Part shown: one piece after another, positions 21,768 to 43,422 of the stretch | Numbering within the stretch: the stretch's first letter is position 1 | Layout: each line of letters starts with the position of its first letter | Source: Betaproteobacteria bacterium | GTDB lineage: Bacteria > Pseudomonadota > Gammaproteobacteria > Burkholderiales > SG8-41 | Reading direction: 5' to 3' | Length of the DNA: 45,185 nucleotides | NCBI GenBank assembly: GCA_016868015.1 | Contig: VGIF01000009.1 | Span: forward strand, 1 to 45,185 | The notes under the pieces: generated by a model | What the model was told of the DNA's origin: nothing | Databases searched by the model: none | The model's input: the letters and a program-made list of their open reading frames with translations, nothing else | Position numbers and translations under genes: made by a program

Positions 21768-22266
21768 GACTTGCCCTTAGAAAAATACGATAAATACTTG
21801 TCGGAACATTGATGAGGTGCTGCCGCTGCTGCCTGTTACCCATAGCTCGTTTCACACGCGATGCGTCTTCGGTCTTCGTAGTCTTCGTGCCAAGTCCACC
21901 TAAGCAACTGCTGTGAAAGCGGCCTCCGCGCGTTCGCCAACACCCTCTCGAAGGAGAAACTAGCCCACTGATTCGAGCCCAAAGAAAACCGTTAATTACA
22001 TCGCGTTTACCCCCTACTTGTCAATCTACGGCTCATTTTTTAGGCACGAACCTTTTGCAACCCTTTCATTGTTTTACGCTTTCCATAATGGCGTTTAGCT
22101 TGTGGATAACTCACCTTGAACCACGTAAAATCAATACCGATTTTGGGGCTTACCAAGCATCGCTCAGCGGCACCGGCGTGTCGTAATGCGGGTGTTTTTT
22201 GAACGTTTTAGCCTATTTTCCGCAACAACTCAAAGCCCTCCACACTGCACCCGCCGCCCGCAAACC
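21768..22266. other. rpmH-dnaA divergent intergenic region
   Basis: About 500 bases without a gene separate two divergent genes. They should contain the promoters of both rpmH and dnaA; I could not pick a convincing -35/-10 pair for either. One perfect DnaA box is at 22101-22109. The plus-strand open frame allows dnaA to start at 22186, but that extension is not family-like. There is no AT-rich box cluster as dense as that after dnaA. Confidence 0.6.
22101..22109 (-). promoter_or_regulatory. DnaA box upstream of dnaA
   Basis: TGTGGATAA is the exact reverse complement of TTATCCACA. It lies 157 bases before the dnaA start, a position suited to autoregulation of dnaA by DnaA. Confidence 0.8.
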
Positions 22267-23649
22267 ATGAGCCCCTTTTGGACCGCCTGCCTCGCGAATT
22301 TTGAACAGGAGCTGCCCAACCAGCAGTTCATCACTTGGATTAAGCCCCTTAGCGCGCAGGTGCTCAACGGCAGCAAAGTAACCATCGTCGCCCCCAACCG
22401 CTTCGTACAGCAGTGGGTGCGCGACAAATACTTGAGCCGCATACGCGAGCTAGCCTTGGCGCACTTCGGCCACCCGATAGACCTGGATCTGTTGCTTGCG
22501 GAAAAAGGCATCACAACGAGCAACGCGACCCCCGAAACGCTGCCGCTTGCACAAACTGCTCCCGCCCTCCCGGCCGCCCCCGCCCCGGTGTCTTCAGTAA
22601 CCGATCGCGTCACCCAATTGCCGCGCGACCTCACCCGGCTCAATCCGGCGTTTACCTTCGACACCTTTGTCACCGGCAAGGCCAACGAGCTCGCCCGCGC
22701 AGCCGCCTCGCAAGTGGCCGAAAAAATCGGCACCGCCTATAACCCGCTATTCATTTATGGCGGCGTGGGTCTGGGTAAAACCCATTTGGCCCACGCCATC
22801 GGCAATTATTTCCGCCAACATCACCCCCAAGCGAAGATTCGCTATATCCACGCCGAGCAATATGTCTCGGACGTGGTGCGCGCCTATCAGCACAAAGCGT
22901 TCGACGATTTCAAGCGTTACTACCATTCGCTCGACATGCTGCTGATCGACGACATTCAGTTCTTCAGCGGCAAGAGCCGTACCCAGGAAGAATTTTTTTA
23001 TGCGTTTAACGAATTAATCGAATCGCACAAACAAGTAGTCATCACCTCAGACGCCTATCCCAAGGAAATAGCCGGCATTGAAAACCGCTTGATTTCGCGT
23101 TTTGGCTGGGGCCTCACCGTGGCGATTGAACCGCCCGAACTGGAAATGCGCGTCGCGATTCTGATCAAAAAAGCGGCTCACGACTCCATCCCGCTAGCCG
23201 ATGACGTCGCGTTTTTCCTCGCGCGCCACATCCAGTCGAATGTGCGCGAGCTGGAGGGTGGATTAAAGCGTGTGCTGGCATACGCCCGCTTTAATCAGCA
23301 AGAACTCAGCGTCGATTTGTGCCGCGAAGCGTTGCGCGACTTACTCGCCATGCAAAATCGCCAAATCTCCATCGAGAATATTCAAAAAACCGTCGCGGAC
23401 TATTACAAAATTAAGGTTTCGGAGATGTATTCCAAAAAGCGCACGCGTAACGTCGCTCGCCCGCGCCAAATCGCCATGGCGCTAGCCAAGGAACTCACGC
23501 AAATGAGCTTGCCCGATATCGGCGAGGCTTTCGGCGGCCGCGATCACACGACAGTCCTGCATGCGTGCCGCAAGATCATGGATTTGCGCACCACCAACGG
23601 CGATATTAGCCGTGATGTCAACTCCTTACTGAAAGTATTACGGTTCTAA
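22267..23649 (+). CDS. dnaA: chromosomal replication initiator DnaA
   Basis: DnaA binds oriC and melts it to start replication. The 460-residue product starts [20 protein letters not shown] (domain I). A proline/alanine-rich linker follows, then the AAA+ domain: [18 protein letters not shown], Walker [16 protein letters not shown] and Walker [13 protein letters not shown]. The C-terminal HTH domain contains [16 protein letters not shown] choose the ATG at 22267; an in-frame ATG at 22186 would add 27 residues not seen in the family. It is followed by the likely oriC and dnaN. Confidence 0.98.
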
Positions 23650-23877
23650 ACGGTGTAGAGACCATTTTGCTTTGTTGATAGCCAGCGGACACTTTGTGCA
23701 TAACCCCAGATTATCGCCTCACTAGAAAAACCATCCACATTGTTTGCGCGATTAAACGTTTTGTTATCCATAACCTTACGCCCGAACTTAAGCGTTTTAG
23801 CTCAAGGTATTGCCAACTTATCCACAGCAAAACAGACGCCTTATTAGACTTATTGGTTTTATTAAAGAAATAAATAC
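23650..23877. other. probable replication origin (oriC) between dnaA and dnaN
   Basis: This 228-base gap holds an exact DnaA box TTATCCACA (23818-23826) and near-boxes TTATCCATA (23764-23772), CCATCCACA (23731-23739) and TGTGCATAA (23695-23703, reverse of TTATGCACA). An AT-rich stretch at 23839-23877, next to the exact box, could be the unwinding element. Genes diverge from this neighbourhood and parAB/parS lie within 10 kb. The AT-rich stretch also weakly resembles the dispersed motif (ATTGGTTTTATTAAAG). Confidence 0.75.
23818..23826 (+). promoter_or_regulatory. DnaA box (exact) in oriC candidate
   Basis: TTATCCACA matches the consensus exactly, immediately before the AT-rich stretch that precedes dnaN. 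Confidence 0.85.
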
Positions 23878-24984
23878 ATGAAACTACTTCAAATCGAGCG
23901 CGACGCTTTATTGTCACCGCTCCAAGCGGTGACCGGCATTGTCGAAAAACGCCACACCCTGCCGATACTCTCCAACGTTCTAATCGAACGTAAAAGCGAT
24001 AAACTGAATCTCATCGCCACCGACCTCGAAATTCAAATCACCACCTCATGCGACGTCGGCGGTAAGGCAGATGATCAAAGCTTGACGCTCTCCGCGCGCA
24101 AGCTGCAGGACATCTTACGCTCGCTGCCGGAAGGTTCGGAAACCACGCTGGATCTGCAGGCCAATAAGGTCCAACTCAAAGCGGGCAAAAGCCGTTTTAA
24201 CTTGCAAACCATGCCGGCGGATGATTTCCCGAAAATGGCCAATGCCGGCGACCGCCAGGCCGGCTTTTCGATTTCGCAAAAACTGCTGCAAGAGCTGTTG
24301 CTGCTGGTGCAATTCGCGATGGCGCAACAAGACATACGCTACTACCTGAACGGGCTGTTGCTGGTGCTGGACGGTGACAAAATCAAAGTCGTCGCCACCG
24401 ATGGCCATCGCCTAAGCTACGCCGAAGGCAAGCTCGACGGTGCCAGCGACAAGCGTGAAGTCATTTTGCCGCGCAAGGCCGTGCTGGAACTATCCCGCCA
24501 ATTGGGGTCGACGGACGCCGCTGTAGACATCGAGATTTATGCCTCGCAAGTGCGTTTCCGTTATGGCGATAGCGAACTTATCACCAAAGTCATTGACGGC
24601 AAGTTTCCCGACTATACACGGGTGATTCCGGTCAACTACCAACAGAAAATTACCGTCAACCGCCAGGATTTGCTGCATTCGTTGCAACGGGCGGCAATTT
24701 TGTCCAATGAGAAATTTCGCGGCGTGCGTTGGATGTTAACCGCGGACAGCCTGCGGATCTCCTGCACCAACACCGAACAAGAAGAAGCGCAGGAAGAAAT
24801 GGAAGTGAACTACAACGGTGACGCGCTGGATGTCGGTTTTAACATCACTTACTTGCTTGACGTACTTAACAACGTCAGCAACGAAAACGTCGAATGCGCG
24901 TTTGGCGACGCTAATAGCAGCATGCTGATCACGCTCCCTGGACGCACGGATTTCCGTTATGTGGTGATGCCGATGCGAATTTAA
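23878..24984 (+). CDS. dnaN: DNA polymerase III sliding clamp (beta subunit)
   Basis: DnaN forms the ring clamp that holds DNA polymerase III on DNA. The 368-residue product starts MKLLQIERDALLSPLQAVTGIVEKRHTLPIL, has LRSLPEGSETTLDLQ and the middle-domain ATDGHRLSYAEGKL. It ends with the canonical LPGRTDFRYVVMPMRI, which forms part of the hydrophobic partner-binding pocket. Length is normal. It lies between dnaA and gyrB. Confidence 0.98.
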   Translation: MKLLQIERDALLSPLQAVTGIVEKRHTLPILSNVLIERKSDKLNLIATDLEIQITTSCDVGGKADDQSLTLSARKLQDILRSLPEGSETTLDLQANKVQLKAGKSRFNLQTMPADDFPKMANAGDRQAGFSISQKLLQELLLLVQFAMAQQDIRYYLNGLLLVLDGDKIKVVATDGHRLSYAEGKLDGASDKREVILPRKAVLELSRQLGSTDAAVDIEIYASQVRFRYGDSELITKVIDGKFPDYTRVIPVNYQQKITVNRQDLLHSLQRAAILSNEKFRGVRWMLTADSLRISCTNTEQEEAQEEMEVNYNGDALDVGFNITYLLDVLNNVSNENVECAFGDANSSMLITLPGRTDFRYVVMPMRI

Positions 24985-24988
24985 GTTA

Positions 24989-27630
<2,642 letters not shown>

Positions 27631-34469: not shown

Positions 34470-34550
34470 TTCCTCACCCTCGAACCCTCTTCCGAGGGGA
34501 GAGGGAAGACACCACCCTTCTCACCCGGAGAAAGAACGGGGATGAGGGAG
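34470..34550. repeat. inverted repeat between the Bug and first CitE-like genes
   Basis: CCTCACCCTCGAACCCTCTT (about 34472-34491) faces an inverted partner GGAGAAAGAACGGGGATGAG (about 34527-34546), with a local hairpin at CCCTCTTCCGAGGGGAGAGGG. It is a dispersed-repeat type common in betaproteobacterial intergenic regions. It may separate expression of the Bug gene from the CitE-like operon. Confidence 0.6.
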
Positions 34551-34594: not shown

Positions 34595-35314
34595 ATGCCC
34601 AACCCCCGACGCTCCTGGATGATCGTCCCCGCCCACGACCCCGCGGCGGGTGCGCTCGTGGCCACGCACAACGCCGACATCGCCGTGCTCGATCTCGAAT
34701 ACAGCGTTGCGCCCAAGCACAAAGAAGCCGCGCGCGATGGCCTCGGCGCGCTGGTTAAAAAACTCGCCGACAGCCAAGTAACAGTGTTCGTGCGCATCGG
34801 CCGCGGCACGCGCTGGGCCGATGTGCGCGCGGCGGTGCATCGCGGCATCAAAGGTATCGTGTTCCCCGGCGCGGATTCGCCGGAGGAAGTCACCGAAGTG
34901 TGCGAACTCATCACCAGCATGGAAAAAGCACGCGGCGTCGATGTTGGCGCCACCGAACTTGCGCTGATGTTCGAATCCGGCAAGGGCTTTTGGAACGCCG
35001 CGGCCATCGCGCAGGCGAGCCCGCGCGTCACCACGCTGGGCGTGGGGCGCATCGACCTCACGATGCGACTGGGGCCGGTGCCGCAAAACGAGTTTCGCTT
35101 GTATCGCTTTTTGATGACGCGTGCGCTGGTGCTGGCGCGCATGCTCGGTAAACAGCCGTTGGGCGCACTGTGGCGGCCCGGTTCGCGCGGCGGTGTGGCC
35201 GATGACGCGGCCACGGCTAAGGCCGCGCGCGAAGCCAGGCTGATGGGCTTTACCGGTTGTGTGTGCGCAACGGCCGCACAAGTGGCGCCGGTCAACCAGG
35301 GATTTCAATCATGA
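34595..35314 (+). CDS. HpcH/HpaI aldolase/CitE-like protein A (atypical metal site)
   Basis: The 239-residue product has the CitE-type barrel pattern: AVLDLEYSVAPKHKEAARDG (31-50), TVFVRIGRGT with Arg67, IVFPGADSPEEV, ALMFESGKGFWNA with Glu127, and GVGRIDLTMRLG with Asp154. In the usual family motif LDLEDAVAP the second acidic residue is Asp; here it is Tyr36. The LPK of strand 4 is FPG. It is shorter than typical CoA-ester lyases (about 280-320), lacking the C-terminal cap. AAAGGTG lies 4 bases before the ATG at 34595. Its stop overlaps the next start (ATGA). A lyase-like fold is likely, the activity uncertain. Confidence 0.82.
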   Translation: MPNPRRSWMIVPAHDPAAGALVATHNADIAVLDLEYSVAPKHKEAARDGLGALVKKLADSQVTVFVRIGRGTRWADVRAAVHRGIKGIVFPGADSPEEVTEVCELITSMEKARGVDVGATELALMFESGKGFWNAAAIAQASPRVTTLGVGRIDLTMRLGPVPQNEFRLYRFLMTRALVLARMLGKQPLGALWRPGSRGGVADDAATAKAAREARLMGFTGCVCATAAQVAPVNQGFQS

Positions 35315-36297
35315 TGCCCGCCAATTTGCCCGAAATCCCCGATCAAATTTTCGTCGGCGAAATGCCCATGCCTAAGTGCATACGCCGCTCGGTGTATGTG
35401 TTGTCGATGGACGATCCGCGCTTGGGCGACAAAGCCTACGCCTCGTGGGCCGATGCGATTTTGCTCGATTGGGGCAAACAACCCGGTCACGATTGGCAAG
35501 CGGACCTTAAGTCGCGGATGCCCGTGGCGATCGGCGCGGTAGTGAAGGGCGGCGCGGAGGTGTTTGTGCGCATCAACGCCGCCAGCGCGTTGGCCGAGCT
35601 CGACGCGGCGGTGTTCAGCGGCTTGACCGGCGTGGTGGTGAAGGGTGTCACCAGCGCACAAGAAATCGCGAATATCGCGCAGCGCCTCGACACCCTCGAA
35701 GTAACTCGCGGCATCGCCAAGGGCGCGACGGCAATCGACATCGAAGTCGATACCGCCGCCGCGGTGTGGCTCTCGCTCGACATCGCGCGCGCAAGCGAAC
35801 GCTTAGGCTGTTTTCTGTTGAACGAGCCGGTGTTGTGCACGGCGCTGGGCATGCAAACCACGCCCATGCTCGAGTTCGATCCGCTGGAATACATCAAATC
35901 GCAGCTCATCACCGTGGCGGTGTCGGTGGGCGGTATGGTGCTCGGCATGAGTTACCCGCTGGGCCTCACCGAAGAAAACGCTGCCGAGGATGTGGTGAAA
36001 GCCGCGATCAAGCGCGCGCGCGACACCGGGTTCAAGGGGGCGGTGTGCCCGCACCCGGCGTGGATCAAGCATTGCAACGACGGTTTTCGCCCGACCGAAA
36101 AAGAAGCGGAGACTTACATCAAGATGATCGAATTGTTCGCCGACGGCATCAAGCGTGGCATGGCCTCGGTGCCGATGGACGGCAAAATGATCGACGTGCC
36201 GGTGGATTTGCGCGCCAAGCTTTATCTGAAGTGGGCGCTGCGTGCGCAAGCGCGCGATGACGCCAAAGCCAAAGCGCATCAGTCGCCGGCGGCATAA
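35311..36297 (+). CDS. HpcH/HpaI aldolase/CitE-like protein B (degenerate metal site)
   Basis: The 328-residue product follows the same barrel order as its neighbours: RRSVYVLSMDDPRLGDKA, ADAILLDWGKQP where others have LDLEDAV, EVFVRINAASALAELDA with Arg87, VVVKGVTSAQEIANIA, AIDIEVDTAAAVWLS, and KGAVCPHPAWIKHCNDGF near the end. The two acidic residues after Asp53 are replaced by Trp-Gly-Lys and the IE-x-A-x-G segment is altered. It probably does not bind Mg like CitE and may be a structural partner. The ATG overlaps the preceding stop; a second ATG follows directly. Confidence 0.78.
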   Translation: MMPANLPEIPDQIFVGEMPMPKCIRRSVYVLSMDDPRLGDKAYASWADAILLDWGKQPGHDWQADLKSRMPVAIGAVVKGGAEVFVRINAASALAELDAAVFSGLTGVVVKGVTSAQEIANIAQRLDTLEVTRGIAKGATAIDIEVDTAAAVWLSLDIARASERLGCFLLNEPVLCTALGMQTTPMLEFDPLEYIKSQLITVAVSVGGMVLGMSYPLGLTEENAAEDVVKAAIKRARDTGFKGAVCPHPAWIKHCNDGFRPTEKEAETYIKMIELFADGIKRGMASVPMDGKMIDVPVDLRAKLYLKWALRAQARDDAKAKAHQSPAA

Positions 36298-36316
36298 ACG
36301 TTCGCAGGGAACCAAC

Positions 36317-37258
36317 ATGAATAATCGCGTAGCCCGTGTATCGATGTTCGTCACCCCTACCAACCCGCGTTTTATCGACAACGCGTGGAAGCGCGGCGGC
36401 GACGTTTACATCCTCGATATCGAAGACTCCATCGCGCCGGCGGAGAAAGAACGCTGCCGCACGCTAATTCGCGAATCGATCGACAAGGCGAGCAAAGGCG
36501 GCGCGTCGATTTACGTGCGCGTGAATAAACCGTTTGTCGATGCCGATCTGCCGTACGCGGTGTGGCCGGGTGTGGCGCGCATCATGCTGCCCAAAACCGA
36601 ATCGGCGCAGGAATATCAACGCGTGCATGAAATCATTTCGCAGCTTGAAAAAGAGCGCGGCTTAACACCCGGCGACATCGAGTTGTATCCGATGATCGAA
36701 TCGGCGCTGGGTGCGGTGAACATTTACGAGATCCTCACTTCCACGCCGCGCAAACTGGGTTCGTTCGGCGGTGGTACCGGTTACGACATGGCGATGAATC
36801 TGGGCATCGAAATGTTCGCGGCCTTCGATCAGTATGCCTGGCCCGCGGGCAACATTGCCTTGGCCTGCATGGCGCTCGATATCGAACCCACTGGCGGGGT
36901 GTTCGTGCCGAATGAGTCGGGCCGCGTCGATCAAGGCGATCAGGCGGCGAAACAAGCCGCGGCGTTACACGCGGCCGGCGTGCATCACGCCAGCGCCTTG
37001 CATCCGAATTTTATCGAGCCGCTGGTCAAAGGCTTGTCGGCCAGCGCGGAGGAAATCGCGTGGGCCAATAAAGTAATCACGGCGTACGAAAAATTCATCG
37101 ACGAAGGCGAAGCCGTGAGTGAACTCGACGGCAAAGTCATCGACCAATACGAATACGATCTCGCGCAGCGCACGCTGGCATGGGCGGCGGCGTGCGCGGC
37201 AAAAGATGCGTACAAAGCGCAAGCCCTGGCGCGCACCCGGGCCGCCGCGGGAGATTAA
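36317..37258 (+). CDS. CitE-like CoA-ester lyase C (canonical site)
   Basis: The 313-residue product keeps the whole family signature: YILDIEDSIAPAEKERC with Asp34, Glu36 and Asp37, YVRVNKP with Arg68, IMLPKTESAQEY, YPMIESALGAVNIYE with Glu128, and GGGTGYDMAMNLG with Asp157. CitE/malyl-CoA/citramalyl-CoA lyases cleave or form C-C bonds in CoA esters with Mg2+. The specific substrate is unknown. It is 19 bases after protein B; the ATG at 36317 is used because the preceding 25 codons overlap B and are unlike the family. It is likely the active subunit of the trio. Confidence 0.88.
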   Translation: MNNRVARVSMFVTPTNPRFIDNAWKRGGDVYILDIEDSIAPAEKERCRTLIRESIDKASKGGASIYVRVNKPFVDADLPYAVWPGVARIMLPKTESAQEYQRVHEIISQLEKERGLTPGDIELYPMIESALGAVNIYEILTSTPRKLGSFGGGTGYDMAMNLGIEMFAAFDQYAWPAGNIALACMALDIEPTGGVFVPNESGRVDQGDQAAKQAAALHAAGVHHASALHPNFIEPLVKGLSASAEEIAWANKVITAYEKFIDEGEAVSELDGKVIDQYEYDLAQRTLAWAAACAAKDAYKAQALARTRAAAGD

Positions 37259-37307: not shown

Positions 37308-38432
37308 ATGAAAGCGTTGGTCATCGGCGGCACCGGCCCCACCGGGCCGCATGTGGTGAATGGGCTGCTCGCGCGCGGCTACGCCGTCACCATTCTGCAC
37401 GGCGGCCAGCACGAGGTTGAGTTCGATCAAGAAGTCGAGCATATCCACACCGATCCGCATTTCGCCGAGACGTTGGAGCCTGCGTTAAAAGGGCGCAGTT
37501 TCGATCTGGCGCTGGTGACTTACGGCCGCATGCGCATCATCGCCGAATTGATGAAAGGCAAAACCGGGCGCTTCATCGGCGTGGGCGGTTCCAGTGTTTA
37601 CGCGCCGCGCAACGATCCGCGCTGGGGGCCGCTCGGCCAGCCGCATCAAATTCTCGAAGACAGCCCGCGCTGCGACGACCCCGCGGGGGCGAAGTTCAAT
37701 TACCTGATGTGGGTGAGCGAAGAAACGGTGATGCGCGCACATCGCGAAGGCCATTACAACGCGACTTACTTTCGCTACCCGCTGGTCTACGGCCCGCACG
37801 CGCCGGGCAACCCCGATTGGAGCATGGTGCGGCGCGTGCTCGATGGCCGCAAACACCTGATCATCGCCGCCAACGGCCTGATGCGCCGGCGCGGTTACGC
37901 GCGCAACGCCGCGCACGCGTTGCTGCTGACGGTGGATAAACCCAAGGAATCCGCCGGGCAGTTTTACAACATACGCGACGATCAACAGTTCACCCAGCGC
38001 CAGCACGCCGAGTTCATCGCGCGGCATTTGCAGCGCGAGTGCGACATCGTCGAAGTGCTGCCGCTGCTCGCGCAGCGTGTCTACCAGGGCAGCAGCGATC
38101 AAACCCGCGCGCGGGCGGTGGAGTTCGATATCGGTAAAATCAAAACGCAATTGGGCTACCGTGATCTCGTCACACCTGCCGCGGCCCTCGCCGCCTCGGT
38201 CGATTGGCTCGTCGCGAATCGCCCGGCGCCCGGCGGCGAAGTCGAACGCCAGTCGGGCGACCCGTTTGCTTATGCGGCCGAGGATGCGCTGATCGCCGCG
38301 TGTAAAACGGGCGAGGCCGCCGCGCTCGCGGTGCAATTCCCCGACATGCAGTTGGGCCACATGTATCGCCACCCGAAAAAACCCGGTGACGCGTGGGCGC
38401 CGCCGGCGCGCGGCGCGCCGGTGCCGGGATAA
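37308..38432 (+). CDS. NAD(P)-dependent epimerase/reductase of the extended SDR type
   Basis: The 374-residue product has the Rossmann motif VIGGTGPTGPHVVNGLLARG at residues 5-24, GVGGSSVYAP for the second nucleotide/substrate strand, and RYPLVYGPHAPGNP, typical of extended SDRs. The C-terminal part, about 60 residues (GDPFAYAAEDALIAACKTGE), is beyond the usual fold. The standard Tyr-x-x-x-Lys is not clear: around YLMWVSEETVMRA the Lys is missing. The substrate is unknown. It lies 49 bases after the CitE trio and 35 before the CoA ligase. Confidence 0.75.
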   Translation: MKALVIGGTGPTGPHVVNGLLARGYAVTILHGGQHEVEFDQEVEHIHTDPHFAETLEPALKGRSFDLALVTYGRMRIIAELMKGKTGRFIGVGGSSVYAPRNDPRWGPLGQPHQILEDSPRCDDPAGAKFNYLMWVSEETVMRAHREGHYNATYFRYPLVYGPHAPGNPDWSMVRRVLDGRKHLIIAANGLMRRRGYARNAAHALLLTVDKPKESAGQFYNIRDDQQFTQRQHAEFIARHLQRECDIVEVLPLLAQRVYQGSSDQTRARAVEFDIGKIKTQLGYRDLVTPAAALAASVDWLVANRPAPGGEVERQSGDPFAYAAEDALIAACKTGEAAALAVQFPDMQLGHMYRHPKKPGDAWAPPARGAPVPG

Positions 38433-38467
38433 ACGACTCGCGGGCACCACACTCGTTTTCTCATCCC

Positions 38468-39583
38468 ATGTTACTCACCGAATCGCAAAGCAAGGACATG
38501 CTGCGCGCGCACGGCATCGCCGTGCCCGAGGGCTTGTTGATCCGCAAGCCCGATCAAATCAAACGTTGGCGCGGGGAACTCCCCGTCGCGATCAAAGCGC
38601 AAGTGGCTTCCGGCGGGCGTGGCAAGGCGGGCGGCGTGTTGCGCGCCAACGGCGTTGCCGAGGCGCAATTCGCGGCGAAGCAACTCTGCGACATGAAATT
38701 TGGCGGTGAAGCGCCGCGCGCGTTGTTGGTGGAGCCGTGGGTCGCGCACGAGCGCGAAATGTATCTCGCGATCACCATCGATGTCACTGCCGGCGGCTAC
38801 GTCGTGCTGTATTCGCCCAAAGGTGGTGTCGAAGTCGAAAACAACGCGCCGCTGCAATATGCGTTCGGCTCACCGCGCGCGTTTCGCGCGCACGCGCTGC
38901 GCAAGTTGTTGGGTGAAGCCGAGCCCGACGCGGGCCTGCGTGAACGCCTGATCACGCTGGTACGGCGCATGCTATATCTCGCCACGGCGGCGGACGCGAT
39001 GACGGTGGAAATCAACCCGCTCACCGTGGTCGACGGCAAGCTCATCGCGCTCGATGCCAAAATCGTGCGCGACGAAGCCGCGGCGTTTCGCCACGCCGAT
39101 CTCGCGGCCGAAATGGAAGATGCGCGCAAGCGCGAGCCCAAGGCGATGGCGCGCGCGCTCGCCGACAATTTGATGATGGTGTGGCTCGACGGCGAGGTGG
39201 GCCTCATCTCCGGTGGCGCGGGCATGACCATGGCGGCGATGGACATGATCGCCGACGCGGGGGCGAAACCCGCGTGTTTTCTCGATTGCAGCTCCAACCC
39301 CACGCCGGCGGGGTACAAGTTGGCGTTCAGTATTCTCGATAGCGAACCGCAAGTGAAAGCGATTTTGTTCAGCATCTTCGGCGGCGGCACGCAAATCGAC
39401 CGCGTGGCGCTCACCTTGCACGATGTGTTGAAAGCGCGCAAAAGCAAAAAACCGGTGGTGATCCGCATGAATGGCACCGGGCGCGAGGCGTGTGATGCGT
39501 ATATGAAAGAAGTCGGTTTGTTGAATCACGATTCGCTGGAAGCTGCGGTCGCCGACGTGGTGCAGAAAGCGGGCGCCGCATGA
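38468..39583 (+). CDS. ADP-forming acyl-CoA ligase beta subunit (succinate/malate-CoA ligase type)
   Basis: The 371-residue product is SucC/MtkA-like: MLLTESQSKDMLRAHGIAVP, ATP-grasp VAIKAQVASGGRGKAGGV with Lys43, the metal site VEINPLTVVDGKLIALDAKI, and the CoA-ligase domain ISGGAGMTMAAMDMIADAGA. Differences from SucC: FLDVGGGA is FLDCSSNPTPAGY, and the GGIVRCD loop is GGGTQID. That loop is reported to hold the carboxylate in succinyl-CoA synthetase, so another acid is likely. The gene is coupled to the alpha subunit by ATGA and sits after three CitE-like genes, the logic of the malate thiokinase/malyl-CoA lyase pair. The start at 38468 gives the family N-terminus. Confidence 0.88.
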   Translation: MLLTESQSKDMLRAHGIAVPEGLLIRKPDQIKRWRGELPVAIKAQVASGGRGKAGGVLRANGVAEAQFAAKQLCDMKFGGEAPRALLVEPWVAHEREMYLAITIDVTAGGYVVLYSPKGGVEVENNAPLQYAFGSPRAFRAHALRKLLGEAEPDAGLRERLITLVRRMLYLATAADAMTVEINPLTVVDGKLIALDAKIVRDEAAAFRHADLAAEMEDARKREPKAMARALADNLMMVWLDGEVGLISGGAGMTMAAMDMIADAGAKPACFLDCSSNPTPAGYKLAFSILDSEPQVKAILFSIFGGGTQIDRVALTLHDVLKARKSKKPVVIRMNGTGREACDAYMKEVGLLNHDSLEAAVADVVQKAGAA

Positions 39584-40679: not shown

Positions 40680-41522
40680 ATGACTGCACTACAAGCAGCA
40701 AATAGCACCGACCACTTCATCGAAGCCAACGGCGTCAACCTGCACTACCTCGATTACGGCACGCGAGGCCGCCGCCCGATGCTGTGCCTACACGGCGGCG
40801 CGGCGCACGCGCATTGGTTCGATTACGTCGCACCCGGTTTCACCGCGGAGCATCATGTTTACGCCATGGATTCCCGCGGCCACGGCGACAGCGCCCGCGC
40901 CGATGCGAAAACTTATACGTGGCACACCTTCGCCGCGGATGTGAACGCGCTCGCCGAAAAACTCGATCTGCAAGACTACGTGCTGGTGGGCCACTCGATG
41001 GGCGGCATGATTTCGCTGGTGAATGCCGCGACGCATCCGGGGCGTATCGGGGCGCTGATCATTGTCGACAGCGTGATGCTAATGCCGATGGAGCGGGTGA
41101 CCCGCATGAACGCCTTCGGCACGGTGCCCGCGCGAGCGTACGCCACGCAAGAGGAATTGATCGCGCGTTATCGCCTCGAAGGCGGCGAAAAGCAATTGAC
41201 GGCACCCGCAGTGCTGCGCCGCATGGCCACCTACGGCAGCCGCCAAAACGCCGACGGTACCTGGCAGCACAAGTCCGATCGCGGCGTGTACGCGAATTTT
41301 TCGCAGATCGAAGGCGTGCCGTTTTGGGAAAAAATCAAAGTGCCGGCTCTGGTGATCCGTGGCGGCGCGCATAGCCCGCGCTTCACGCCGGAGATGATGG
41401 CTGAGATTCACGCGCGCGCGCCGCAGGTGCAAGTGGCGACGGTGGACGATTCGGATCACCATGTCACGCTGGATAATCCGCAGGGGTTTATCGAGGTGGT
41501 GCGCAATTTTTTGCGCGCGTGA
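40680..41522 (+). CDS. alpha/beta hydrolase
   Basis: The 280-residue product is a standard alpha/beta-hydrolase: oxyanion HGGAAHAHWFD (38-48), DSRGHGDSARAD, nucleophile elbow GHSMGG with Ser106, and the C-terminal SDHHVTLDNPQGF with the catalytic His at 260 or 261. The acid is in or near VIRGGAHSPRF. It lacks a signal peptide. It could hydrolyse an ester, a CoA thioester or a C-C bond (as in meta-cleavage hydrolases). It lies 218 bases after the CoA ligase genes with a repeat between, so it may have its own transcript. Confidence 0.88.
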   Translation: MTALQAANSTDHFIEANGVNLHYLDYGTRGRRPMLCLHGGAAHAHWFDYVAPGFTAEHHVYAMDSRGHGDSARADAKTYTWHTFAADVNALAEKLDLQDYVLVGHSMGGMISLVNAATHPGRIGALIIVDSVMLMPMERVTRMNAFGTVPARAYATQEELIARYRLEGGEKQLTAPAVLRRMATYGSRQNADGTWQHKSDRGVYANFSQIEGVPFWEKIKVPALVIRGGAHSPRFTPEMMAEIHARAPQVQVATVDDSDHHVTLDNPQGFIEVVRNFLRA

Positions 41523-41612: not shown

Positions 41613-42317
41613 ATGAGCTTCGCCAACCGTACTGTCATCGTCACCGGCGCCGCCGGCAATCTGGGTAAAGCCGTGGCGCAAGCGTTTGCCGAGCAAGGCG
41701 CGAATCTGGTTTTGGTGGATCTCAAACGCGACGCTCTTGCAGCGGCATTCGGCGCAGAGAACGATCGCCGTCTATTCGCGCCCGCCAATCTGCTGGAAAC
41801 AGCCGGCGCAACCAGCGTCACCCAAGCCGCGCTCACGCGCTACAAACGCATCGACGTGTTGTGCAACATCGCCGGCGGTTTTCGCATGGGCGAGGCGGTG
41901 CACGAAACCTCGAACGAGAACTGGAATTTTTTGTTCGACATCAATACGCGCACCTTGCTTAACATGGTGCGCGCGGTGGTGCCGCACATGGTCGCTGCGG
42001 GCGGCGGTAAAATCGTAAACGTCGGCGCGTTCGCCGCGCAAAAAGGCGTGGCGCAAATGGGCGCCTACACCGCATCGAAAGGCACGGTAATTCGCATGAC
42101 CGAGGCAATGGCTGCCGAGTTGCGCGATAAAAACATCAACGTCAATTGCGTGCTGCCGACGATCATCGACACGCCAGAGAACCGCGCCGCCATGCCTAAG
42201 GCCGACCCGGCGAAGTGGGTGGCACCGGCGGATTTGGCCAATGTGATTGCATTTTTGGCATCGGACGCGGCGCGCGCGGTGCATGGGGCGGCGGTGCCGG
42301 TGACGTCGCTTAGTTAG
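41613..42317 (+). CDS. classical SDR-family protein lacking the catalytic Ser
   Basis: The 234-residue product has the cofactor motif VTGAAGNLGKAVAQAF (10-25), NIAGG, Asn111, and Tyr152/Lys156 in AYTASKG. The position 13 before Tyr, usually Ser, is Ala139 in VNVGAFAAQKG. The loss of Ser with Tyr and Lys kept occurs in a subset of SDRs, and function there is uncertain. The C-terminus WVAPADLANVIAFLASDAAR is typical of 3-oxoacyl reductase-like proteins. It is preceded by AAGGAG about 9 bases before the start. Confidence 0.85.
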   Translation: MSFANRTVIVTGAAGNLGKAVAQAFAEQGANLVLVDLKRDALAAAFGAENDRRLFAPANLLETAGATSVTQAALTRYKRIDVLCNIAGGFRMGEAVHETSNENWNFLFDINTRTLLNMVRAVVPHMVAAGGGKIVNVGAFAAQKGVAQMGAYTASKGTVIRMTEAMAAELRDKNINVNCVLPTIIDTPENRAAMPKADPAKWVAPADLANVIAFLASDAARAVHGAAVPVTSLS

Positions 42318-42687: not shown

Positions 42688-43001
42688 AACGGGGTGAAAT
42701 CTGGCTGGCTGCGCTAGACCCCACCGTTGGCAGCGAGATTCAAAAAACGCGGCCTTGCGTAATCGTGTCCCCGCGGGAGATGCACGACTATTTGCGCACG
42801 GTAATCGTGGCGCCAATGACCACCGGCAACAGGCCGGCGCCCTATCGCATACCCATTACCTTTCGCCGAAAATCGGGACTGATCTTACTGGACCAAATCC
42901 GCACGCTCGACAAAACGCGTTTGGTCAGGAAAGTGGGCGCTGCAAGCGACAAAACCTTGGCCGACACGTTGCGTACACTGCAAGAAGTGTTTGCTGAATA
43001 A
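42681..43001 (+). CDS. mazF: MazF/PemK-type endoribonuclease toxin
   Basis: MazF cleaves single-stranded RNA at short sequences. The 106-residue product has VKRGEIWLAALDPTVGSEIQ, KTRPCVIVSPREMHDY, VIVAPMTTGNRPAP and LLDQIRTLDKTRLV, the full family pattern. The conserved Arg of KTRP and the Thr of MTTG are present. Start GTG at 42681, or the next GTG, overlaps the antitoxin gene. It appears intact. Confidence 0.92.
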   Translation: MVKRGEIWLAALDPTVGSEIQKTRPCVIVSPREMHDYLRTVIVAPMTTGNRPAPYRIPITFRRKSGLILLDQIRTLDKTRLVRKVGAASDKTLADTLRTLQEVFAE

Positions 43002-43026
43002 ACTGGAATATTTCGAGAGGGAATCC

Positions 43027-43422
43027 ATGGATGCACTCAAACCCGGCCTCAAAGGCGTGAGCGAACTCACGGTCGCTCGCGAACACTGCACCTCGCGCGG
43101 CGGGCCGTTCGTGTTTATGACGCCTGCGATGGTGCAGTTTTGCGAACTGTCGTGCCATAAACTGGTGGCGCCGCTACTCGCGGCGGGGCAGAACTCCGTC
43201 GGCACCGTGGTGCACATCAAACACCTCGCGCCCACGCCCGAAGGCATGAAGGTGCGCGCGGAAGTTGAATTGGCGGAAGTCGATCGCCGGCGTTTAAAAT
43301 TCAAAGTGCAAGTGTTCGATGAAATGGAACTCGTCGGTGAATGCGAGCATGAGCGCTTTGTGATCGATGTCGAAAAAGCCGGCGAGCGGCTGGCAAAGAA
43401 AATTGCGGCGATGAAGAAGTAA
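43027..43422 (+). CDS. FlK-like acyl-CoA thioesterase
   Basis: The 131-residue product is a single hotdog domain: FVFMTPAMVQFCELSCHKLV, GTVVHIKHLAPTPEGMKV, and KVQVFDEMELVGECEHERFVI. Thr32, Glu40 and His66 have the same spacing (8 and 26) as the Thr42-Glu50-His76 triad of fluoroacetyl-CoA thioesterase FlK. The family hydrolyses small acyl-CoA esters; the substrate here is unknown. It starts 25 bases after mazF, which may place it on the toxin-antitoxin transcript. The ATG at 43027 is chosen; the 12 codons upstream are unlike the family. Confidence 0.8.
   Translation: MDALKPGLKGVSELTVAREHCTSRGGPFVFMTPAMVQFCELSCHKLVAPLLAAGQNSVGTVVHIKHLAPTPEGMKVRAEVELAEVDRRRLKFKVQVFDEMELVGECEHERFVIDVEKAGERLAKKIAAMKK

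What the first reader, a model, noticed from the sequence alone, without database searches (positions are those of the whole stretch)
34595..37258. Three tandem CitE-like proteins, only one with the full metal site
A, B and C follow one another with ATGA overlap or a 19-base gap. C keeps LDIEDS, Arg68, Glu128 and Asp157. A has LDLEYS (Asp to Tyr) and lacks the C-terminal part; B has LDWGKQ and an altered Glu strand. A set of one active and two degenerate paralogs under joint translation suggests a hetero-oligomeric lyase, with the altered subunits serving structural, substrate-binding or regulatory roles.
Basis: partly seen in the sequence, partly recalled or inferred. Interest (0 to 1): 0.62.

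Follow-up and report, generated by a model that had tools for sequence, protein, structure and literature searches.

The report
Three-gene CitE-like lyase, probably heteromeric
Three neighbouring genes encode related enzyme subunits that travel together in many related genomes, and their sequences suggest that one provides the catalytic core, a second the lid that closes it and a third a lidless partner, so that a normally self-sufficient enzyme seems to have been divided among three proteins.

Summary
In detail: A (239 aa), B (328 aa) and C (313 aa) are CitE-like (PF03328) proteins in tandem. The trio is not local. Type I, in the window's order, is in 32 loci, 26 with all three genes and the rest cut by contig ends; type II, order A'-C'-B', is in 20, 15 with all three. 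In a tree A+A', B+B' and C+C' are each one supported group. All three are under purifying selection. Of seven catalytic positions C keeps all. A keeps both direct Mg ligands but not the Asp45 equivalent, and with two exceptions has no lid; type I B lacks the Mg ligands but keeps the lid and its catalytic Asp. In solved relatives each lid closes the neighbour's barrel (PMC3832036). Here the constrained parts are C's barrel and B's lid: lid/barrel divergence is 0.58 and 0.45 in B, 2.89 and 1.77 in C, about 1 in single CitEs. I conclude that it is probably a heteromeric CoA-thioester lyase whose working site is C-barrel plus B-lid. No complex or activity has been measured; the substrate is unknown.

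The parts
34595..35314 (+). Subunit A: lidless CitE-like TIM barrel, 239 aa; direct Mg ligands E127 and D154 kept, second-shell Asp replaced by Tyr (LDLEYS)
   Evidence: AlphaFold2 model pLDDT 86.3; aligns with MCL 4l9y residues 10-265, whose lid is given as 264-318 in PMC3832036
35311..36297 (+). Subunit B: CitE-like barrel without the usual metal site (LDWGKQ; Asp and Val in the two Mg-ligand columns) plus canonical C-terminal lid (DGKMIDVPVD, catalytic Asp D295), 328 aa
   Evidence: AlphaFold2 model pLDDT 91.1 with barrel and helix-hairpin-helix lid
36317..37258 (+). Subunit C: CitE-like lyase with all seven catalytic positions (D34, E36, D37, R68, E128, D157, lid D276), 313 aa
33435..34409 (+). 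TctC/Bug solute-binding protein (tripartite tricarboxylate transporter receptor); a 70-77% identical relative stands directly before A in 13 other type I loci
37308..38432 (+). NAD-dependent epimerase/dehydratase-like protein, probably same operon; no tblastn match (E 1e-15) in the other 51 trio loci
38465..39583 (+). SucC/MtkA-like CoA ligase beta subunit (candidate activator of the substrate to its CoA thioester)
   Evidence: relatives (51%) in trio loci L057 and L058
39580..40461 (+). SucD/MtkB-like CoA ligase alpha subunit, ATGA overlap with 38465-39583
40680..41522 (+). alpha/beta hydrolase (3-oxoadipate enol-lactonase-like match, far under its cut-off), possible pathway gene
41613..42317 (+). 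short-chain dehydrogenase, possible pathway gene
42991..43422 (+). FlK-family (fluoroacetyl-CoA thioesterase) protein, possible pathway gene

Best explanation
A, B and C are subunits of one heteromeric CoA-thioester C-C lyase, most simply an A-B-C ring in place of the usual CitE-like homotrimer. Known CitE-like enzymes are trimers in which the C-terminal lid of each subunit closes the active site of its neighbour and brings the catalytic Asp. Here the lid of B closes the barrel of C, which holds Mg, the substrate-orienting Arg and the other barrel residues. In a three-membered ring this places the lid of C over the barrel of A, and leaves uncovered only the barrel of B, which is the one that has lost its metal site. 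The substrate is an imported carboxylic acid, converted to a 3-hydroxyacyl-CoA (in this genome perhaps by the SucCD-like ligase downstream) and cleaved by retro-aldol reaction to an acyl-CoA and a 2-oxo acid. Shown by sequence: conserved trio, residue pattern, selection, domain-specific constraint, neighbours. Inferred: physical complex, ring order, one main active site, the reaction. Unknown: the substrate, and what A's half-kept site does.
For: Co-occurrence: 32 type I loci, window included; A in 31 and C in 27, every miss at a contig end. In samples of 200 genomes of the order, A, B and C mark the same 8 loci in 6 genomes, A off the contig in one. Where a type II B stands apart (3 loci), a C' with a neighbouring A-like match lies elsewhere in that genome (3 of 3). 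Tree of 98 rows: A1+A2 100/99, B1+B2 100/98, C1+C2 100/100; A, B and C together apart from 29 other CitEs, 97/93. Type I median dN/dS: A 0.137, B 0.148, C 0.105. Seven catalytic positions: C keeps all in 26 of 27 type I rows (the other is cut before the lid) and 17 of 17 type II. Lid/barrel divergence ratio with bootstrap intervals: B 0.58 [0.38-0.84] and 0.45 [0.31-0.65], C 2.89 [2.08-4.09] and 1.77 [1.34-2.47], single CitEs 0.97 [0.77-1.31]. Models from single CitEs give the barrel of C the highest median (166 bits in both types) and the lid of B the highest median (67, 66; C 32, 29). Partial rank correlation of divergence, B lid with C barrel: 0.52 and 0.51; B lid with A barrel: -0.11 and 0.02. 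Structural basis: PMC3832036 and PMC6689899.
Against: No complex, activity or structure was measured, and no complex model could be run. C has a full set of residues, its own lid Asp included, so a C homotrimer might work alone. The correlation support is soft: B lid with C barrel beats B lid with A barrel in 91% and 88% of bootstraps but beats B lid with B's own barrel in only 69% and 46%, and C lid with A barrel is not separable from C lid with B barrel. Type II B is less degenerate: of 20, 17 keep the Glu, 9 the Asp ligand and 5 all seven positions; barrel scores of type II B overlap those of C. B has other conserved acidic residues near the ligand columns, so a shifted metal site is not excluded. 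Two of 15 type II A proteins have a lid-like tail (L090, L097). Why A keeps its metal ligands is not explained.
Confidence: 0.62

Rival explanations
1. C alone forms the active homotrimer; A and B are pseudo-enzymes that bind or regulate it, or bind CoA or substrate elsewhere, without giving residues to its site.
For: C has all seven catalytic positions including its own lid Asp. Type II B genes unlinked from A and C show that tight linkage of B is not strict.
Against: The lid of C is its fast-evolving part (lid/barrel 2.89 and 1.77) and scores low against single CitE lids, whereas B's lid is its slow part and canonical; a merely regulatory B should not show this.
Confidence: 0.2
2. The three act as separate enzymes on successive steps: for example C a CoA lyase, A a lidless aldolase on a free acid, B a thioesterase or CoA-binding protein.
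For: A keeps direct Mg ligands, and in type I also the Arg. Lidless class II aldolases exist in the same superfamily (recalled).
Against: Type I B lacks the usual pair of metal ligands (0 of 32 rows acidic in both columns). A's nearest solved folds are lid-bearing malyl-CoA and citramalyl-CoA lyases, two type II A proteins have a lid-like tail, and A, B and C have parallel trees.
Confidence: 0.13
3. A and B are decaying duplicates of C.
For: A is shorter and B has lost its metal ligands. Two loci have a short or split A gene (L074, L094).
Against: Type I A and B recur at 53-80% identity to the window or L044 proteins, median dN/dS 0.14-0.15, and the same replacements are fixed in type I: Tyr in 31 of 31 A; Lys or Arg in 31 of 31 readable B.
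Confidence: 0.02

Closest known systems
Malyl-CoA lyases (R. sphaeroides 4L9Y, M. extorquens 5UGR, C. aurantiacus 4L80)
   Same: Fold; in C all catalytic residues; lid exchange between neighbours as the inferred mechanism. Top Foldseek hits for B and A and best solved sequence match of the C profile (5ugr, 2.4e-33).
   Different: The known enzymes are homohexamers, dimers of trimers (PMC3832036); here three paralogs with split domains, and in the pairwise alignment C lacks a stretch that 4l9y has after the Asp strand.
(S)-Citramalyl-CoA lyases / CitE-like lyases (Rv2498c, CLYBL, RipC)
   Same: PF03328; in Rv2498c the Mg site and a C terminus that caps the neighbour (PMC6689899, section 12).
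   Different: Rv2498c is a trimer of one protein. A, B and C stay far under the NCBIfam cut-offs for citE (at best 112 of 443), RipC (73 of 375) and haloarchaeal malyl-CoA lyase (36 of 500).
Citrate lyase CitDEF
   Same: The beta subunit CitE is a homologue.
   Different: CitDEF joins CitE to the unrelated CitD and CitF (family facts recalled); here all three subunits are CitE paralogs, and none of the window neighbours scanned is CitD or CitF.
Malate-CoA ligase MtkAB plus malyl-CoA lyase (serine cycle; recalled)
   Same: SucCD-like ligase and CoA lyase in one gene group.
   Different: The window ligase beta subunit scores below the MtkA cut-off (181 of 604) and both subunits below the SucC and SucD cut-offs. 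Only 3 of 52 trio loci have the SucCD-like pair; 25 have a CoA-transferase and 10 an ADP-forming ligase match.

Membership tests
HpcH_HpaI / CitE-like superfamily (PF03328) | Profile match above the curated cut-off | tested here: met
   A 85.4, B 42.3, C 82.8 bits, cut-off 25
HpcH_HpaI / CitE-like superfamily (PF03328) | TIM barrel fold | tested here: met
   AlphaFold2 models of B and A match malyl-CoA lyases (A); C was not modelled
Catalytic CitE-like lyase (seven conserved positions of PMC3832036) | All seven residues in C | tested here: met
   26 of 27 type I (the other cut before the lid) and 17 of 17 type II rows
Catalytic CitE-like lyase (seven conserved positions of PMC3832036) | All seven residues in A | tested here: not met
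   0 of 31 and 0 of 15 rows: Asp45 equivalent is Tyr in 31 of 31 type I, Glu in 15 of 15 type II; a lid Asp is aligned only in the lid-like tail of L090
Catalytic CitE-like lyase (seven conserved positions of PMC3832036) | All seven residues in B | tested here: not met
   Type I 0 of 32 (Mg Glu column D, T, N or A; Mg Asp column A, E, V or T; lid Asp kept in 30 of 30 readable); type II 5 of 20 do carry all seven
CitE-like lyase | Homotrimeric assembly with lid exchange | not testable with these tools
   No complex modelling or biochemistry here
Malyl-CoA lyase | Insertion of about 30-40 residues after strand 6 (PMC3832036) | tested here: inconclusive
   C lacks a stretch there in the pairwise alignment with 4l9y; no structure of C was made
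Named NCBIfam equivalogs citE, RipC, haloarchaeal MCL | Score above the curated cut-off | tested here: not met
Citrate lyase CitDEF | citD and citF beside citE | tested here: not met
   Not among the window neighbours scanned; only part of the neighbourhood was scanned

The most novel reading that the evidence does not exclude
An obligate A-B-C heterotrimeric CoA lyase in which a three-fold homotrimer with three identical sites has become an asymmetric ring with essentially one site, built from the barrel of C and the lid of B, while the lidless A closes the ring so that the only uncovered barrel is the dead one of B. The division arose once, before types I and II parted, and was then inherited by both.
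Probability: 0.5. Interest if true: 0.7.

Novelty: new variant of a known kind. Interest (0 to 1): 0.62.

Why it matters
The CitE-like lyases I could read about are homo-oligomers in which each site is built from two copies of one gene product (PMC3832036, PMC6689899). Here a domain-swapped active site seems to have been divided among paralogs, barrel to one and lid to another, and the division is readable from the opposite evolutionary rates of the two domains. It gives a clean, testable case of how a homomer becomes an obligate heteromer. It also warns against naming A, B or C singly as citrate lyase subunits, and marks an unknown carboxylic acid pathway in uncultured Betaproteobacteria, Rokubacteria and Dehalococcoidia.

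Tried and rejected
Decay of A and B: rejected. A trio private to this genome: rejected. Fused A-B-C genes that would hint at association: the coarse in-frame test in the script printed none. Plasmid and phage records: the rows listed show distant CitE relatives only (best place under 60% identity in every record); I did not look for trios there. B in a sample of 369 genomes of the whole class: outside the own genome only distant relatives, E 4e-26 at best, in 3 genomes, so the trio looks confined. Divergence correlations were tried as a test of which lid covers which barrel: suggestive for B lid with C barrel, silent on C lid; the first, linear version gave 0.51 and 0.29 for B lid with C barrel, the ranked version with a rate-matched control 0.52 and 0.51. 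CoA-activating genes as a mark special to trios: rejected, since 27 of 31 single CitE loci have one too; TctC is commoner beside trios (26 of 32 and 17 of 20 against 4 of 31), but the singles come largely from other taxa by their titles. A complex model of A-B-C was not possible, since only single chains can be predicted here. Literature searches for a heteromeric CitE or a CitE trio listed no title or abstract start that reports one; only open-access full texts are held, and searches listed 10 of 383 and 10 of 649 papers. Papers seen: PMC3832036 (outline with abstract, passages, sections 9 and 13, part 1 of 2 of section 14), PMC6689899 (passages and section 12); all others as search listings only. 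Rows dropped before counts: five loci that repeat others (L062, L069, L084, L093, L102); the two pieces of the A gene of L094; single CitEs of 250 aa or less in the alignment. The tree used 98 of the available rows, chosen by hand for spread. The 80 loci are the best of 247 confirmed stretches. Some loci come from the same genome, so loci are not independent genomes.
Full report
OBSERVATION. A is 34595-35314 (239 aa), B 35311-36297 (328 aa), C 36317-37258 (313 aa); A and B share ATGA, and 19 bases part B from C. Each passes the Pfam cut-off for PF03328. The genome holds 12 PF03328 matches, three of them this trio. The locus lies about 7 kb after a dnaA-dnaN-gyrB cluster.

THE TRIO ELSEWHERE. 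A search of 200 genomes of the same order with B gave close B proteins beside A and C relatives. A scan of GTDB species genomes with a B alignment and a classification by best query gave two kinds. Type I keeps the window's order A-B-C: 32 loci, window included, after removing repeats; A is present in 31 and C in 27, all three in 26, and each absence is at a contig end. Type II has the order A'-C'-B': 20 loci with B', 15 of them with all three, one more with A' in two pieces (L094), one cut before A' (L100), and three with B' alone (L091, L095, L103). A' is 32-39%, B' 31-36% and C' 38-43% identical to the window proteins in the rows. In six type II loci 1.9 to 4.5 kb separates C' from B'; TctC and amidohydrolase genes lie between. 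The genomes of the three loci with B' alone each hold a C' on another contig with an A-like match next to it. In the 200-genome samples (same handles listed), A hits at E below 1e-95 (7), C hits below 1e-140 (8) and B hits below 1e-44 (8) mark the same 8 loci in 6 genomes, with a wide score gap to the next hits. By record titles the organisms are mostly uncultured Betaproteobacteria, with type II also in Rokubacteria and Dehalococcoidia. Several titles read 'MAG: Bordetella parapertussis'; I suspect naming artefacts of environmental bins, did not test it, and draw nothing from them.

ORIGIN AND SELECTION. A maximum-likelihood tree of 98 proteins puts A1+A2 (100/99), B1+B2 (100/98) and C1+C2 (100/100) each on one side of a branch, and all three together apart from 29 other CitE-like proteins (97/93). 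The simplest reading is that a triplication came first and the trio then split into types I and II. By handles and record prefixes, G373, CANKUB01 (= G496), DHVE01, CAMDLH01, CANIID01 and CAITMU01 carry both types. Pairwise dN/dS (Nei-Gojobori, dS 0.05-1.5) has medians of 0.137 (A), 0.148 (B), 0.105 (C) in type I and 0.22, 0.205, 0.181 in type II: purifying selection on every subunit. The type I gaps are short: A-B at most 60 bases in 21 of 31, B-C in 19 of 27.

ACTIVE-SITE ANATOMY. PMC3832036 (sections 9 and 13) names the conserved residues of R. sphaeroides malyl-CoA lyase: Asp42, Glu44, Asp45, Arg76, the Mg ligands Glu141 and Asp168, and Asp299 in the lid. The lid of each subunit closes the neighbour's site, and the authors conclude that monomers cannot be active. 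PMC6689899 describes the same capping in Rv2498c. I mapped these positions by a joint alignment of 177 proteins (the pairing of Asp299 with C Asp276 is my reading of that alignment and). C keeps all seven in 26 of 27 type I rows, the other being cut before the lid, and in 17 of 17 type II rows. Type I A keeps Asp42, Glu44, Arg76, Glu141 and Asp168 in 31 of 31, has Tyr at 45 in 31 of 31, and ends with the barrel. Type II A keeps the Mg Asp (15 of 15) and Glu (14 of 15) but in no row Glu44 or Arg76. Type I B has Lys or Arg at 45 in 31 of 31 readable rows, D/T/N/A for the Mg Glu and A/E/V/T for the Mg Asp, never acidic in both (0 of 32), yet keeps Arg76 (31 of 32) and the lid Asp (30 of 30). Other acidic residues near these columns are conserved in B, so a shifted site is not excluded. 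Type II B is less changed: lid Asp 20 of 20, Mg Glu 17 of 20, Mg Asp 9 of 20, and 5 of 20 carry all seven letters. The 35 single CitEs kept for comparison have the canonical residue at each of the seven positions in 35 of 35.

FOLDS. AlphaFold2 gives B a full barrel plus the helix-hairpin-helix lid (mean pLDDT 91.1) and A a full eight-stranded barrel without lid (86.3, with weak loops near 155-170 and 191-200). The best solved matches are malyl-CoA lyases. A aligns with residues 10-265 of 4l9y (Z 25.9, rmsd 2.7, 232 aligned), and the paper gives that enzyme's lid as 264-318: A ends where the lid begins. Two of 15 type II A proteins, L090 and L097, have a lid-like tail, as expected if the lid was lost within the A line.

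DIVISION OF LABOUR. If the site were shared between subunits, the halves in use should be the constrained ones. Lid/barrel divergence (bootstrap intervals) is 0.58 [0.38-0.84] in 29 type I B and 0.45 [0.31-0.65] in 20 type II B; 2.89 [2.08-4.09] in 26 type I C and 1.77 [1.34-2.47] in 17 type II C; and 0.97 [0.77-1.31] in 35 single CitEs. Models built from single CitEs say the same: median barrel scores are highest in C (166 in both types; B 113 and 152, A 152 and 149), median lid scores highest in B (67 and 66; C 32 and 29); in type II the barrel ranges of B and C overlap. Partial rank correlations of divergence link the lid of B with the barrel of C (0.52 in 25 type I trios, 0.51 in 15 type II), not with the barrel of A (-0.11, 0.02); barrel columns of B matched for rate give -0.08 and 0.21. 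This last test is weak: the order against A's barrel holds in 91% and 88% of bootstraps, against B's own barrel in 69% and 46%, and the partner of C's lid is not resolved.

MECHANISM. The simplest reading is a heterotrimer in which B's lid closes C's barrel. In a three-membered ring this sets the rest: C's lid on A's barrel, and no lid on B's barrel, because A has none. The uncovered barrel is then the one without the usual metal site. The ring is inference; the constraint pattern is measured.

PATHWAY. A TctC-type binding protein lies in 26 of 32 type I and 17 of 20 type II loci, and a CoA-activating enzyme (family III CoA-transferase, SucCD-like or ADP-forming ligase) in 21 of 32 and 15 of 20. 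The window has the SucCD-like pair. In ten type I loci a CoA-transferase of one close family (92-100% identical to that of L078) ends a short way before A. Controls: 31 single CitE loci have a CoA-activating gene in 27 and TctC in 4, so only TctC differs, and taxon could explain that. The type II amidohydrolase (11 of 20) resembles 4-sulfomuconolactone hydrolase far below its cut-off (150 of 500 bits), which hints at a lactone-derived acid. The substrate is unknown.

VERDICT. The finding is real and better than stated: a conserved paralog trio with parallel descent, and with the two halves of a shared active site under opposite constraint in two subunits. I rate it a new variant of the CitE-like lyases, probably heteromeric, at 0.62.

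Noticed in passing
window 22186-27470: dnaA, dnaN and gyrB homologues stand in order about 7 kb before the trio, so the locus is probably near the chromosome's replication origin.
   Followed up: partly
L074 and L094: The A gene of L074 is short (195 aa) and that of L094 is in two frames (75 and 222 aa), either assembly error or real damage.
   Followed up: no
L053, L054, L056-L058, L067, L072, L073, L103: Record titles of these environmental-looking MAGs from several isolates read Bordetella parapertussis; probably automatic misassignments, not tested.
   Followed up: no
L052:13109-15697 and L067:14883-17423: A double-length family III CoA-transferase (about 850 aa, two matched stretches) lies downstream of type I trios.
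   Followed up: no
window 34470-34545: The gap between tctC and A holds a G+C-rich stretch with inverted complementarity (ccctcttccgaggggagaggg) that may be a terminator or a repetitive element.
   Followed up: no
L098, L099, L101: Rokubacterial single CitE proteins form a separate group with about 40% identity to the window genome's single CitE on contig C156.
   Followed up: no
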